Shown one piece after another: positions 1 to 7,096 of a stretch of 7,096 bases of DNA (its first letter is position 1; each line of letters starts with the position of its first letter). A model generated the notes under the pieces. It ran no database searches. It saw only the letters and a program-made list of their open reading frames with translations, and had not been told where the DNA came from. The stretch covers positions 1 to 7,096 of the forward strand of contig PUOZ01000121.1 in the NCBI GenBank assembly GCA_003553165.1, in the 5' to 3' direction. Source of the DNA: Thioalkalivibrio sp. (lineage in GTDB: Bacteria > Pseudomonadota > Gammaproteobacteria > Ectothiorhodospirales > Ectothiorhodospiraceae). Both the position numbers and the translations under genes were made by a program.

Positions 1-2
1 CC

Positions 3-968
3 ATCAACCGACTCACTGTCCGACCTTCGGAAAAGCAGACGCTGGAGGAACTCGTCGACACCGAAGAGTTCTTCCGTGCGTTGACTCCGGCGCTGCTCTC
101 GCAGATCCTCGGGCGGCCGATCGCCCGGATGGAGAGCCGGCCCGACGACCTGCTTCGACGCGCCGAACGCGACCTGAGCTTTCTGAGGGCTCGAGGATGC
201 CACGCGCTCTCTCTGTACGACCGGCGCTACCCCGCGGCGCTGCAGGAGATCTATGACCCTCCCTACCTGCTCTATCTGCGCGGCGAGCTCCCGGCCATTG
301 ACCGGCCTATGGTCGCGCTCGTCGGGACGCGGGACCCGGGCGCGTCGGCAGCGATCGCAGCGCGCACGCTTGCCGGAGAGTTCGCTCGCTCCGGCGTGGC
401 GGTCGTCTCGGGTCTCGCGCGGGGCATCGACGTCGAGGCCCATCTCGGGGCGATGGAACACGGAATCACCGGGGCCGTGCTTGCTTCCGGAGTCGACCTG
501 ATCACGCCCTCCGCACACCGGGGCGTCGCAGCCCGGATGCTCGATCGCGGCGGTTTCCTCCTCAGCGAGTATGCTCCCGGCGTCCCCCCTGTGAAGTACC
601 ACTTCCCGGCACGCAACCGCATCATCAGTGGGCTGTCGCGCGCCGTGATCGTGCTGCAGGCGCCCGCGAAGAGCGGTGCGCTGATCACCGCCGACTATGC
701 ACTCGATCAGGGGCGCGATCTGTTCGTGCATCGGGCCGGCATAGAAGGCGCGCGCGGCGCGGGCAGCGCGGCGCTCGCCGCGGACGGAGCTCCGATCATC
801 GATTCCGCGAGCGAGGTATTCCGGGAGTGGGGGATCGAGATGACTCGAGACGTTCGTGCGCCGGGCCATGCTGACCGGTGCGTTCCGGAACCCCGCTCCG
901 CGGAGGAGGCCGCGCGGCGGCGAATCGAGCTCGTGCGGCTGTCGATCTCCGGTGAGGCGTCGAGATGA
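3..968 (+). CDS. dprA: DNA-processing protein DprA, 5' end cut by the window
   Basis: DprA binds incoming single-stranded DNA and loads RecA during natural transformation, acting in the cytoplasm. The frame is open from the first full codon at position 3, and no ATG or GTG lies upstream. The residues before the TTG at 81 still read as a DprA N-terminal region (INRL..RPSEKQTLEEL), so the true start lies outside the window and TTG 81 is probably not the start. Counting from codon 81, the Rossmann-like DprA core shows VGTRDPG (81-87), SGLARGID (110-117), FPARNRIISG (175-184), then SGALITADYALDQGRD (198-213). There is no C-terminal winged-helix domain; the last 45 residues are low in recognisable features. 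The stop overlaps the start of the xer gene by 4 bp (ATGA), suggesting translational coupling. The sequence reads as spirochaete-like to me, unlike the gammaproteobacterial genes further right. The family call is firm; the lineage call is inference. Confidence 0.93.
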   Translation: MNRLTVRPSEKQTLEELVDTEEFFRALTPALLSQILGRPIARMESRPDDLLRRAERDLSFLRARGCHALSLYDRRYPAALQEIYDPPYLLYLRGELPAIDRPMVALVGTRDPGASAAIAARTLAGEFARSGVAVVSGLARGIDVEAHLGAMEHGITGAVLASGVDLITPSAHRGVAARMLDRGGFLLSEYAPGVPPVKYHFPARNRIISGLSRAVIVLQAPAKSGALITADYALDQGRDLFVHRAGIEGARGAGSAALAADGAPIIDSASEVFREWGIEMTRDVRAPGHADRCVPEPRSAEEAARRRIELVRLSISGEASR

Positions 969-1888
969 ATCGAACGTCGGACCGCAGCCCGGCCAGGGTG
1001 GCGCTCTCTCATGCGCAGGAGTACCTGGCGTACCTGCGCAGCGTGAGGAACCTGAGCGATGCGAGCATCCGTGCGTACCGCAGCGACCTCTGCGCCTTCG
1101 CCGGCTGGCTGTCCCGGAACGGGCTGGACGAAGACGGCGTCGACGCCGCGGTTGCGCGTCGGTATGTAGCACATCTGTCCCGGCAGAACGCCGCGGTCAG
1201 CACGGTGAATCGCAGCCTGTCTTCGCTCAAGGGGTACTTCCGGTTTCTCGAGCGTACGGGACGGTCGGCGGGGTCGCCGCTCGAAGGGGTTCGAGGGCTC
1301 AGAACGCCGGGCCGGCTTCCCGGCTTTCTCTTCGAGGACGAGATCTCCGAGCTGCTGACGATCGAGGGGGACGACTTCGCCTCCGTGCGAGACCGGCTCA
1401 TCCTCGAGTTGCTGTATTCCACCGGGTGTCGGATCAGCGAGCTCGTTACCGTGAATCTTGACGACATCGATTTCAGGCGAGGACGGGTGCTCGTACATGG
1501 AAAGGGCCGCAAGGATCGAATGGTGTTTCTGGGTGCTCCGGCGCGACGGGTCCTCCGGGAGTATCTGCCGTTGCGATCCGAACGTCTGGTTCGGCTCGGG
1601 GTGCGCAACGAGAAGGCGCTCGTGATCAACGCCAACGGCCAACGGATCACGCAGCGGGGGGTCGCCGGGATCATCCGAAAGCGCGTAATTGAGAAGGGAA
1701 TCGTGAAGCACGTGAGTCCGCATACATTCCGGCATACTTTTGCGACCCACATACTCGACCGCGGTGCTGACATTCGCGTGGTTCAGGAGCTGCTCGGACA
1801 CAGCAGCCTGTCCACCACGCAGATCTATACGCACGTGGCGCGCGCGCGCCTGCAGGCCCTCCACGCGCGGCATCACCCAAGGGGTTGA
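965..1888 (+). CDS. xerC/xerD: Tyrosine recombinase XerC/XerD, probable chimera of two lineages
   Basis: Xer recombinases resolve chromosome dimers at dif during cell division. The 307-residue product has the usual family length. It has an N-terminal SAM-like core-binding domain (about 15-100) and a catalytic domain with all expected residues: R156 (GCRISEL), K180 (HGKGRKDR), H253 and R256 (SPHTFRHTF), H279 (LLGHSS) and the nucleophile Y288 (TTQIYTHV). The ATG overlaps the dprA stop, and GAGG at 954-957 gives a ribosome binding site 7 bp upstream. The left context (dprA) is that of XerC/CodV in Firmicutes and spirochaetes, while the right context (dsbC) is that of XerD in E. coli. Residues 1 to about 281 (for example GFLFEDEISEL and VVQELLGHSSLS) look spirochaetal. 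The tail ARARLQALHARHHPRG looks like gammaproteobacterial XerD. The join probably lies within the conserved LSTTQIYTHV segment. Catalytic activity is plausible because the fusion preserves every key residue. C versus D cannot be settled here. Confidence 0.93.
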   Translation: MNRTSDRSPARVALSHAQEYLAYLRSVRNLSDASIRAYRSDLCAFAGWLSRNGLDEDGVDAAVARRYVAHLSRQNAAVSTVNRSLSSLKGYFRFLERTGRSAGSPLEGVRGLRTPGRLPGFLFEDEISELLTIEGDDFASVRDRLILELLYSTGCRISELVTVNLDDIDFRRGRVLVHGKGRKDRMVFLGAPARRVLREYLPLRSERLVRLGVRNEKALVINANGQRITQRGVAGIIRKRVIEKGIVKHVSPHTFRHTFATHILDRGADIRVVQELLGHSSLSTTQIYTHVARARLQALHARHHPRG

Positions 1889-1926
1889 CGCAACTCTTGG
1901 GTCCGCGCGCAGTCCCACACTCCAGC

Positions 1927-1953
1927 CCGGTGTTACACTCCACCGGTTTTTTT
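1927..1953 (+). terminator. Candidate intrinsic terminator after xer
   Basis: A perfect 6-bp GC-rich stem, CCGGTG (1927-1932) with CACCGG (1941-1946), closes an 8-base loop and is followed directly by seven T (1947-1953). This is the classic shape of a Rho-independent terminator and lies 38 bp after the xer stop. The stem is short, and it overlaps a candidate promoter element for dsbC, so the site may serve one role or both. Confidence 0.5.
1931..1939 (+). promoter_or_regulatory. Candidate extended -10 promoter element for dsbC
   Basis: TGTTACACT reads as TGn followed by TACACT, an extended -10 element with 4 of 6 matches to TATAAT. I see no good -35 hexamer at 16-18 bp spacing, which is tolerable for extended -10 promoters. 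Transcription would start near 1946, giving a leader of roughly 27 bases before the dsbC ATG. The element sits in the loop of the candidate terminator. Confidence 0.35.
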
Positions 1954-1972
1954 CACTTGACGAGACGGTTGC

Positions 1973-2677
1973 ATGCTGATGATGCGAAATACCTTGATTT
2001 CCCTGCTGGCCGTGATGGCCATGTCCCCGGCGATCGCCACCGAGGTGATCGAGAAGCGAATGGCCGAAGTCGTGCCGACCGTCAGCCCGGATTCGATCCG
2101 GCCGACGGAAATGGCCGGTATCTTCGAGGTCCGCTATGGAACGGACATCTTCTACGTCTCCGAGGACGGACGGTTCCTGCTTCAGGGCAACCTGATCGAT
2201 CTGGAATCGCGGCAGAATCTGACCGAGCGGGCTAAGCGCCATGTGCGCGCAGAGATCTTTGCGGAAATTCCCGACTCCGAACTGACCGTGTACACGCCCG
2301 AGGGCAGGGTCCGGCATACGCTGAACGTCTTCACCGACCCCAACTGCCCCTTCTGCCGTCAGATGCATGACGACATGGAGAAATACCTCGAGGCCGGCAT
2401 CAAGGTGCGCTATTTCATGTACCCGGTCCTTGGGCGGCAGTCACCCGAGATCATGCGTGATGTCTGGTGTGCCGACAGCCGCACGGATGCCATGGACCGT
2501 GCCAAGGCGGGTCTCGCAGTCGCCTCCAGGGACTGCCCCACCCCGGCGGAAGAACATCTGGCGCTGGGCCGGGAAATGGGGATCAGCGGCACGCCCGCGA
2601 GCATTGCCAACAGTGGCCAGCTCATCTCCGGCTTCCGCCCCGTGGTCGAGATGCTGATGATGCTGGAGTCGGAATAG
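1973..2677 (+). CDS. dsbC: Thiol:disulfide interchange protein DsbC
   Basis: DsbC is a periplasmic dimeric isomerase that reshuffles wrong disulfides and is kept reduced by DsbD. The 234-residue product begins with a Sec signal peptide, with probable cleavage after AIA at residue 22. An N-terminal dimerisation domain follows (about 23-85), then a linker and a thioredoxin-fold domain (about 113-234). The active site is CPFC (125-128) after FTDPN, where E. coli DsbC has CGYC. The cis-proline loop is GTP (206-208). A second cysteine pair, C166 (VWCAD) and C188 (SRDC), matches the structural disulfide of the E. coli protein. The start at 1973 has a weak GAG purine stretch at 1962-1964; ATGs at 1979 and 1982 would shorten the signal peptide by two or three residues. 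It follows a xerD-like gene end as in E. coli, but recJ, which comes next in E. coli, is absent. DsbG is less likely given the length and context. Confidence 0.93.
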   Translation: MLMMRNTLISLLAVMAMSPAIATEVIEKRMAEVVPTVSPDSIRPTEMAGIFEVRYGTDIFYVSEDGRFLLQGNLIDLESRQNLTERAKRHVRAEIFAEIPDSELTVYTPEGRVRHTLNVFTDPNCPFCRQMHDDMEKYLEAGIKVRYFMYPVLGRQSPEIMRDVWCADSRTDAMDRAKAGLAVASRDCPTPAEEHLALGREMGISGTPASIANSGQLISGFRPVVEMLMMLESE

Positions 2678-2689
2678 ATCGGAAGGACA

Positions 2690-5585
<2,896 letters not shown>

Positions 5586-5623
5586 GTGCTTCATTCCTTA
5601 TTCAGGGGGGCATAGCGCCGGGC

Positions 5624-5731
5624 GAAGCGACTCTCTGGCCCCGGTCGCGGGTGTCGGCAGCAGGGATGCTGCCGTCAAGCCTACAGGGATGTATTCACGG
5701 CGTCCCGCGAACGGGGCCTGAGAGTCGCTTC
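5624..5731. repeat. Nested palindromic intergenic element between parE and queG
   Basis: Left arm 5624-5651 and right arm 5704-5731 are complementary at 26 of 28 positions (start GAAGCGACTCTC, end GAGAGTCGCTTC). They enclose 52 bases that contain two smaller hairpins. The element fills most of the 144-bp gap between the convergent genes, and its right arm overlaps the queG stop by two bases. Neither strand shows a T-tract after the arms, so it is not a standard intrinsic terminator, although the long stem could pause transcription. The core (CCTACAGGGATGTATTCAC) resembles intergenic repeats I recall from several gammaproteobacteria, so a dispersed REP- or MITE-like element is possible. No second full copy is seen in the window. 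Confidence 0.75.
5656..5693 (+). promoter_or_regulatory. Tandem GGGA-loop hairpins resembling CsrA/RsmA sites
   Basis: Hairpin 1 is GGCAGCA-GGGA-TGCTGCC (5656-5673), with a perfect 7-bp stem. Hairpin 2 is TACA-GGGA-TGTA (5682-5693), with a 4-bp stem. Both present CAGGGATG (5661-5668 and 5684-5691). As RNA in the parE direction, 5681-5692 reads CUACAGGGAUGU and matches the CsrA SELEX consensus RUACARGGAUGU at 11 of 12 positions; hairpin 1 matches at the 8-base core. The minus strand has no GGA in these loops, so the resemblance is strand-specific. Whether the RNA is made or bound is unknown. Confidence 0.4.
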
Positions 5732-6830
5732 ATTCCCCTGGGGCGGGTGTTGTACCGGTGAGCCTCTGGAGGGCCCATTCCACATGCTCGCGCACCAGTG
5801 GCGACGGGTGCTCGGAGCGCCGTCTCAGCGCAGCGAGAGCCTCGGCGCTCGCCGGGCCGTTGCCCAAGGCCACCGCGAGGTTGCGCAGCCAGCGCTCGTG
5901 GCCGATGCGGCGGATCGCCATGCCGGCGGTCCGGTCGAGGAAGCTGGATTCGTCCCAGTCGAACAGTTCGATCAGCGATGCCGTATCCAATCCGTGACGC
6001 GCCGCGAAGTCGGGCTCCACGCTCACCTCGGCGAAGCGGTTCCAGGGGCAGACCAGCTGGCAGTCGTCACAGCCGTAGATGCGGTTGCCCAGCAGCGGCC
6101 GCAGTGGTTCCGGGATCGCGCCGTGGTGCTCGATGGTCAGGTAGGAGATGCAGCGCCGGGCATCCAGATCGTAGGGGCCCCGGAAGGCGCGCGTGGGGCA
6201 GATGTCCAGGCAGGCGGTGCAGCTGCCGCAATGGGCTTCGACCCGGTCGTTGACGGGCAGCGGGAGATCGGTGAACAGTTCGCCCAGAAAGAACCAGGAC
6301 CCGGACTCGCGGGCGAGCAGGTTGGTGTGCTTGCCGATCCAGCCCAGACCCGCTTGTTCGGCGAGGGCCTTCTCCAGTACCGGGGCGCTGTCGGTGAAGG
6401 CGCGGTAGCCGAAGGGGCCGACCTCGGCCTCGATCCGGTTCGCCAGTTGCTGGATCCGACGGCGCAGGAGCTTGTGGTAGTCGCGGCCGAGGGCGTAGCG
6501 CGAGACGTAGGCGCGCGCCGGATCGGCCAGGACCTGCCAGGGGTCGGCCAAGTCCGGGGGCAGGTAATCCATGCGCAGGCTGATGATGCGCTGCACGCCC
6601 GGAACCAGCAGCGACGGGTCGCGGCGCATTGCGGCCCGGTCCCGCATCCACTGCATGTCACCGTGGGAGCCGCTGTCCAGCCAGCGCTCCAGGTGGTCCG
6701 CGTGCGCGCCCACATCGGCGGGGCTGATGCCCACCGCCTGGAAGCCGAGTTCGCCCGCCCAGGCGCGGATGCGGGCGGCCAGCTCGCGGCATTGGCTTTG
6801 CGACAGGGATTGCGGCACGATTCCAGTCAT
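5730..6830 (-). CDS. queG: Epoxyqueuosine reductase QueG
   Basis: QueG carries out the last step of queuosine synthesis, the cobalamin-dependent reduction of epoxyqueuosine to queuosine in the anticodon wobble base of Asp, Asn, His and Tyr tRNAs. The 366-residue product has an N-terminal cobalamin-binding reductase domain with TDSAPVLEKA (146-155), whose Asp is the conserved acid, and GWIGKHTNLL (163-172). A ferredoxin-like module with two [4Fe-4S] clusters follows: CGSCTACLDICP (201-212), C227, then CDDCQLVCPWN (254-264). The last 60 residues contain HEAT-like helices. The length matches the family, and the N-terminus aligns with E. coli QueG, supporting the ATG at 6828-6830. AAGGG lies only 2 bp upstream, so ribosome binding is not strong, and the GTG four codons in is a possible alternative. 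Divergent queG and nnrE is the E. coli arrangement. No other queuosine genes are in view. Confidence 0.96.
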   Translation of the reverse strand: MTGIVPQSLSQSQCRELAARIRAWAGELGFQAVGISPADVGAHADHLERWLDSGSHGDMQWMRDRAAMRRDPSLLVPGVQRIISLRMDYLPPDLADPWQVLADPARAYVSRYALGRDYHKLLRRRIQQLANRIEAEVGPFGYRAFTDSAPVLEKALAEQAGLGWIGKHTNLLARESGSWFFLGELFTDLPLPVNDRVEAHCGSCTACLDICPTRAFRGPYDLDARRCISYLTIEHHGAIPEPLRPLLGNRIYGCDDCQLVCPWNRFAEVSVEPDFAARHGLDTASLIELFDWDESSFLDRTAGMAIRRIGHERWLRNLAVALGNGPASAEALAALRRRSEHPSPLVREHVEWALQRLTGTTPAPGE

Positions 6831-6867
6831 GGCCCTTGGCAGTCTCTCCGATATGGATCATGACCCG

Positions 6868-7096
6868 ATGACCGTTCCCATTGCCAACCGCCTCTTTGGA
6901 GAGGCAGGAATGCGCGAACTCGACCGCCGGGCGATGGCGCTGCCCGGGATGGGCGACGGGAAGCTGATGGAACGGGCCGGTGCGGCCCTGCTCGAGGCGC
7001 TGTCGGAAGGCTTCCCGGCGGCGCGGACGCTCGGCGTGCTCTGTGGCCCTGGCAACAATGGCGGGGATGGCTTCGTGCTGGCGCGCCTCGCCGCAG
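6868..7096 (+). CDS. nnrE: NAD(P)H-hydrate epimerase NnrE, 3' end cut by the window
   Basis: NnrE (YjeF N-terminal domain) interconverts the R and S forms of hydrated NAD(P)H so that the NnrD dehydratase can repair both. Only the first 76 residues are in the window. They show the family pattern: EAGMRELDRRAM (residues 12-23), then LMERAG, and the nucleotide-binding loop CGPGNNGGDGFVLAR (59-73). In-frame ATGs also occur at 6829 and 6853. I prefer 6868 because GGA at 6855-6857 lies 10 bp upstream and because 6829 would overlap the queG start. In many bacteria the protein continues into the NnrD dehydratase domain, but this cannot be judged here. In E. coli it is followed by tsaE and amiB. The 37-bp gap to queG leaves no room for two separate promoters, so promoters probably lie inside the opposing coding regions. 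Confidence 0.92.
   Translation, partial: MTVPIANRLFGEAGMRELDRRAMALPGMGDGKLMERAGAALLEALSEGFPAARTLGVLCGPGNNGGDGFVLARLAA

What the first reader, a model, noticed from the sequence alone, without database searches (positions are those of the whole stretch)
1800..1850. Xer gene looks like a fusion of a spirochaete-like xerC and a gammaproteobacterial xerD
Upstream context (dprA overlapping xer) belongs to the dprA-topA-xerC(codV) cluster known in Firmicutes and spirochaetes. Downstream context (dsbC) belongs to the E. coli xerD-dsbC order. Inside the protein, residues up to GHSSLS read as spirochaete-like, whereas gammaproteobacterial XerD usually has GHSDLS. The tail ARARLQALHARHHPRG reads as gammaproteobacterial XerD. 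The change lies at about 1808-1846, a segment encoding LSTTQIYTHV that is nearly invariant and can be identical at the DNA level in GC-rich genomes. That is where an assembler could jump between two genomes. A real homologous recombination after transfer is the alternative and would be notable for replacing most of a core recombinase.
Basis: partly seen in the sequence, partly recalled or inferred. Interest (0 to 1): 0.75.

Follow-up and report, generated by a model that had tools for sequence, protein, structure and literature searches.

The report
Cross-phylum assembly chimera inside xer
The recombinase gene in this contig is a splice of two unrelated bacteria's DNA, a spirochaete's for most of the gene and a gammaproteobacterium's for the end, and the splice is most likely a mistake of metagenome assembly rather than a new gene made by a cell.

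Summary
Window 1-1812 differs at 3 positions from contig SKZO01000374.1 of a soda-lake Spirochaetales MAG, where an intact dprA-xer goes on into other genes. Window 1813-7096 belongs to the host genus: contig C64 of the same MAG carries an intact Thioalkalivibrio-like xerD with the same tail and the same dsbC start downstream. The switch lies in 1799-1813. It falls in the longest exact match, 20 bases, between the 17-kb spirochaete locus and the 640 kb (82 of 382 contigs) of this MAG that I compared. None of 29 same-genus relatives holds the spirochaete piece; all 29 match at least part of 1813-7096. The MAG has its own dprA-like gene and two further xer genes. Best reading: an assembly (or library) chimera at a short conserved stretch. 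A real, recent recombination is not excluded without reads. Against a simple jump, the window's own allele shares only 14 bases with the spirochaete. Low interest, useful as a correction.

The parts
1..968 (+). dprA, cut by the contig start; spirochaete DNA
   Evidence: ORF 3-968; TIGR00732 dprA 223 bits against cut-off 191; one mismatch (position 61) to Spirochaetales contig SKZO01000374.1
965..1812 (+). 5' part of xer, residues 1-282 and two bases of codon 283; spirochaete DNA
   Evidence: two mismatches (989, 997) to L020; protein P0001 identical at 283 of residues 1-285
1799..1813 (+). switch point: 1799-1812 is the same in the spirochaete and in C64; the first base that is not spirochaetal is 1813
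   Evidence: lies in the 20-base exact match CACAGCAGCCTGTCGACCAC between L020 and C64, the longest of 100 shared runs of 15 bases or more
1813..1888 (+). 3' end of xerD with the tyrosine codon 1826-1828 (catalytic role recalled); gammaproteobacterial DNA
   Evidence: C64 XerD tail identical; 3 base differences to C64 in 1813-1888; identical to G017 up to 1839
1973..2677 (+). dsbC-like disulfide isomerase gene
   Evidence: PF10411 DsbC_N above its cut-off; NF008129 DsbC 134 bits, below its cut-off of 215; its start is also on C64
2690..3553 (-). thioredoxin-TPR protein gene (CnoX/YbbN-like; that name is recalled)
   Evidence: TIGR01068, PF00085, PF14561 above their cut-offs
3708..5585 (+). parE, DNA topoisomerase IV subunit B (start approximate)
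   Evidence: TIGR01055 1003 bits, cut-off 723
5630..5725 (+). dispersed hairpin repeat, REP-like (name recalled); not part of the chimera
   Evidence: DNA fold z-score -8.6; other copies in the MAG and the genus
5730..6830 (-). queG, epoxyqueuosine reductase
   Evidence: TIGR00276 495 bits, cut-off 200

Best explanation
The xer gene of this contig is a chimera in which bases 1-1812 are spirochaete dprA-xer DNA and bases 1813-7096 are DNA of a Thioalkalivibrio-like gammaproteobacterium, most likely joined by the metagenome assembler and not by a cell. Shown: the two origins, the place of the switch, an intact native xer on each side, and that the switch lies in the longest exact match between the stretches compared. 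Inferred: both organisms were in one sequenced sample; at a small k-mer size their xer genes met in one node of the assembly graph at the conserved GHSSLSTT codons; the assembler left the spirochaete path there and went on along a gammaproteobacterial strain's path; later, larger k-mers kept the join because contigs of earlier rounds are carried forward. A chimeric molecule made in library amplification at the same short match would give the same contig and is an artefact too.
For: Window 1-1812 has 3 mismatches to SKZO01000374.1 of 'Spirochaetales bacterium isolate CSSed162cmB_334', where the xer ORF is whole (320 aa) and is followed by ORFs that read as hslV and hslU. In that genome and a second spirochaete MAG the rest of the window finds only 66-88% homologues. 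C64 of the window's own MAG has a whole xerD followed by the same intergenic DNA and dsbC start, and ends at window position 2105, where C36 goes on. In one search the spirochaete locus (16,960 bases) and 82 of the 382 contigs of this MAG (639,985 bases, spirochaete part of the window left out) share 100 exact runs of 15 bases or more; the longest, 20 bases, is the one at the junction, the next are 18. Genus relative G027 shares 23 bases there. 0 of 29 same-genus relatives hold the spirochaete piece (26 of 29 have short matches, 28-134 bases at 67-94%, 3 have none); 29 of 29 match at least part of 1813-7096. None of the 120 relatives of the window Xer that were listed (of 7921) has the string ARARLQ of the tail. 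The MAG has its own dprA-like gene on C23 and two other xer genes, on C56 and C64. The MAG is fragmented, 67.9% complete, with contig ends that overlap at 94-97% identity. Cock Soda Lake metagenomes were assembled with MEGAHIT, k-min 21, k-max 121, step 10 (PMC6704655, passages seen). Chimeric contigs from shared k-mers are a described failure of such assemblers (PMC7299287, passages seen).
Against: No reads were available, so no direct proof. The exact run between L020 and the window's own gammaproteobacterial allele (as in G017) is only 14 bases (1799-1812), below k = 21; the 20 and 23 bases hold for the C64 and G027 alleles, which have G at 1813 where the window has C, so strain variants with bubble collapse, or a library chimera, must be assumed. 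A 20-base match in a conserved motif of homologous genes is also where a real recombination would happen. The ORF is in frame, as a real recombinant would be. [quoted passage not shown] That the window's MAG comes from the same lake and assembly is inferred, not shown. Exact end overlaps between contigs are 29-118 bases; 6 of 9 do not lie on the 21-121 step-10 ladder.
Confidence: 0.92

Rival explanations
1. A real recombination: a gammaproteobacterial strain recently took up spirochaete dprA-xer DNA, which recombined into its xerD at the conserved GHSSLS codons and replaced the upstream part of the gene.
For: The fusion is in frame, at homologous codons, and keeps an open reading frame of 307 aa. 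C36 and C64 differ at 5 positions in 1799-2105, so C36 carries another allele than C64. The 3 mismatches to the spirochaete would fit a very recent event.
Against: At most 14-23 bases of identity at the join, between phyla; a whole xerD with dsbC start in the same MAG; no relative with the join (0 of 57, 45 of which have any match and none of whose matches begins upstream of window 1697; 0 of 29); only one border seen, since the other end of the spirochaete DNA is the contig end.
Confidence: 0.06
2. An ordinary gene: a gammaproteobacterial Xer that merely resembles spirochaete Xer over most of its length, or a spirochaete contig whose Xer tail resembles XerD.
For: Xer proteins are conserved around the active site; NCBIfam's XerC and XerD models both match the whole protein, below their cut-offs (309 of 335 and 291 of 330 bits).
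Against: Near-identity at the DNA level to two different organisms, switching within 15 bases; resemblance does not give 3 mismatches in 1812 bases.
Confidence: 0.02

Closest known systems
Inter-genome chimeric contig of short-read metagenome assembly
   Same: Two organisms' DNA joined within a short exact match in a conserved gene; a native xer present on both sides; fragmented MAG with overlapping variant contig ends.
   Different: The partners belong to different phyla and the join is in frame at homologous codons, so a gene caller sees a normal gene; the window's own allele shares only 14 bases at the join.
Spirochaete Xer downstream of dprA (P0001, SKZO01000374.1)
   Same: 283 of the first 285 residues, the overlap with dprA, and the DNA upstream.
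   Different: The native protein goes on QVYTHLGLGALKK..., 320 aa, and is followed by an ORF that reads as hslV.
Thioalkalivibrio-type XerD (C64 of this MAG; P0134, T. nitratireducens)
   Same: The tail IYTHVARARLQALHARHHPRG; for C64 also the intergenic DNA and the dsbC start.
   Different: C64 XerD agrees with the window protein at only 99 of the first 285 residues.

Membership tests
Chimeric contig | The two sides match different organisms at near-identity | tested here: met
   (spirochaete side); for 1835-2105 (C64, same MAG) and for the rest (93% to G027)
Chimeric contig | Switch lies in an exact match shared by the two organisms | tested here: met
   longest of 100 shared runs, 20 bases with C64; only 14 bases for the window's own allele
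Chimeric contig | Intact native gene of both sides exists | tested here: met
   L020 and C64
Chimeric contig | Reads or read pairs do not support the join | not testable with these tools
   no reads held
XerD (TIGR02225) | Score above the curated cut-off | tested here: not met
   290.9 against 329.6 bits; C64 XerD reaches 371
XerC (TIGR02224) | Score above the curated cut-off | tested here: not met
   308.8 against 335.15 bits; native spirochaete P0001 also below, 312.4
Tyrosine recombinase, Xer type | R-K-H-R-H-Y active-site residues (positions recalled) in register with E. coli XerD | tested here: met
   alignment to 1a0p; NF001399 286.5 against 279 bits
Horizontal transfer with recombination in xerD | The same join in an independent genome or assembly | tested here: not met
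   0 of 57 relatives (45 with any match), 0 of 29 same-genus relatives, 0 of the 120 listed proteins with the joined tail

The most novel reading that the evidence does not exclude
A strain of a Thioalkalivibrio-like bacterium really carries a hybrid Xer recombinase, made by recombination between phyla at about 14 bases of shared sequence, with a spirochaete body and its own catalytic tyrosine and C-terminal tail.
Probability: 0.05. Interest if true: 0.6.

Novelty: not a real feature. Interest (0 to 1): 0.07.

Why it matters
Such a contig can enter databases as a plausible, in-frame core recombinase and as a dprA in the wrong phylum. It could mislead studies of Xer evolution or of gene transfer between phyla. 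The MAG's contamination score is low (1.47%), so it would not be flagged by that score.

Tried and rejected
Tetranucleotide comparison of the halves: inconclusive, since 1.7-1.8-kb pieces of the gammaproteobacterial part agree with each other little better than the halves do. Contig-end overlaps as a sign of the assembler's k: 9 of 161 ends of 82 contigs match another place exactly for 29-118 bases; C64's end matches C36 for 111 bases, which lies on the published k ladder, but 6 of the 9 lengths do not, so this identifies nothing. Search for more DNA of the same spirochaete in the MAG, with the 17-kb locus only: C36 alone is near-identical, other matches are 65-78% homologues; the rest of the spirochaete genome was not tried. 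Plasmid collection with window 1650-1950: no match. Rfam on the window: none. Paper searches: one search found no paper with all five terms; some searches gave listings, of which I read passages of PMC6704655, PMC6146748 and PMC7299287 only.

Full report
What was checked. The window is the whole of contig C36 (7096 bases) of an unnamed MAG of 2.07 Mb in 382 contigs, 67.9% complete. ORFs: dprA cut by the contig start, xer 965-1888, dsbC-like 1973-2677, thioredoxin-TPR 2690-3553 on the minus strand, parE about 3708-5585, queG 5730-6830 on the minus strand; an ORF open at the right end was not tested.

Two origins. The window Xer's best protein relative, P0001, agrees at 283 of the first 285 residues and at 7 of the last 22. 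P0001 is encoded by SKZO01000374.1, 'Spirochaetales bacterium isolate CSSed162cmB_334'. At the DNA level window 1-1812 has 3 mismatches to it, at 61, 989 and 997; from 1813 mismatches come every few bases. There the ORFs read as ftsZ-xer-TPR-dprA-xer-hslV-hslU (names other than xer and dprA are read from the translations and recalled, not tested). A second spirochaete MAG (L021, 83% DNA identity to the window over 3-1844) has ORFs of the same or similar sizes in the same order. Where a source names the organism of a listed relative, it is a spirochaete (120 listed of 7921). In the two spirochaete genomes the rest of the window finds only 66-88% homologues.

The other side. Contig C64 of the same MAG holds a whole xerD ORF (325 codons from the first start) whose last 22 residues equal those of the window Xer, followed by the same intergenic DNA and dsbC start. 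The two contigs align over window 1718-2105, 93% overall and 2 differences from 1835 on, and C64 ends at 2105. C64's XerD is closest among named proteins to Thioalkalivibrio (P0134, T. nitratireducens, 82%). With window 1-1812, 26 of the 29 relatives match only short pieces, mostly the conserved end of xer (74-96 bases at 74-80%) or a piece of dprA, and 3 (G005, G016, G019) have no match. In a wider set of 57 relatives, 45 of which match window 1500-2690 somewhere, no match begins upstream of 1697.

The join. Window 1799-1812 is the same in the spirochaete and in C64; 1813 is the first base foreign to the spirochaete, and 1799-1839 equals the G017 allele. The 20-base run CACAGCAGCCTGTCGACCAC, shared by the spirochaete and C64, is the longest of 100 exact runs of 15 bases or more between the 16,960-base spirochaete locus and 639,985 bases of this MAG (82 of 382 contigs); the next longest are 18 bases. 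The G027 allele shares 23 bases. The window's own allele has C instead of G at 1813, so for it the strict run is 14 bases. This is the one detail that a simple k = 21 jump does not explain; several strains in the sample and bubble collapse, or a chimeric library molecule, would. The run is in a conserved motif, so a cell's recombination could also have used it.

Native genes. The MAG has a DprA-like gene of its own (C23, 38% identity to the window DprA), a second Xer on C56 (35%), which by its place beside ORFs that read as hslV and hslU is taken to be xerC (not tested with a family model), and XerD on C64 (TIGR02225 above cut-off). The chimera is thus not needed to supply a missing gene.

Assembly background. 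MAGs with CSSed162cmB names come from Cock Soda Lake (PMC6704655), whose assemblies used 2 x 150 reads and MEGAHIT from k 21 to 121 in steps of 10; the genus Thioalkalivibrio was abundant in the sediments (passages seen). An earlier study used k 21 to 131 (PMC6146748, passages seen). That the window's MAG is from this lake is inferred from the near-identity to the lake's spirochaete. A review states that graphs linked by shared k-mers can give chimeric contigs and that k-mers of the next graph are taken from contigs and reads in a MEGAHIT-type scheme; it speaks mainly of closely related species, and also says that MEGAHIT uses read pairs to detect and resolve chimeras, which counts against an undetected jump (PMC7299287, passages seen). 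The MAG has variant contig ends: C60/C56, C31/C76 and C6/C26 overlap at 96.5, 94.6 and 97.3% identity.

Function. If it existed as a gene, the hybrid would keep the Xer active site: its alignment with E. coli XerD (1a0p) runs from residue 15 to 300 with the active-site positions (recalled) in register, the tyrosine (codon 1826-1828) coming from the gammaproteobacterial side. That is expected of a homologous splice and is no evidence that the gene is real.

Verdict. Observation confirmed, interpretation supported in its first form (assembler jump). Not a real feature; confidence 0.92 for an artefact of assembly or library, 0.06 for real recombination.

Noticed in passing
window 5630-5725: A strong hairpin (DNA fold -40.7 kcal/mol, z -8.6, 0 of 200 shuffles as good) between parE and queG; pieces of it recur at 4 other places in the MAG and at many places at 87-100% identity in genus relatives (capped list). 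It looks like a REP-type dispersed repeat (name recalled).
   Followed up: partly
L020 5314-8963 and L021 3827-7485: Both spirochaete contigs seem to carry two xer genes on either side of a TPR-like gene and dprA, with an ftsZ-like ORF upstream and, in L020, hslV-like and hslU-like ORFs downstream (names read from ORFs, L021 by ORF sizes and the matches).
   Followed up: no
G000 contigs C31, C75, C76, C56, C60, C6, C26: Contig ends that overlap at 94-97% identity (and C31/C75 by 118 identical bases), a sign of mixed strains or split alleles in the MAG.
   Followed up: partly
window 1973-2677: The dsbC-like gene has the DsbC N-terminal domain but scores well below the DsbC equivalog cut-off (134 against 215 bits).
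   Followed up: no
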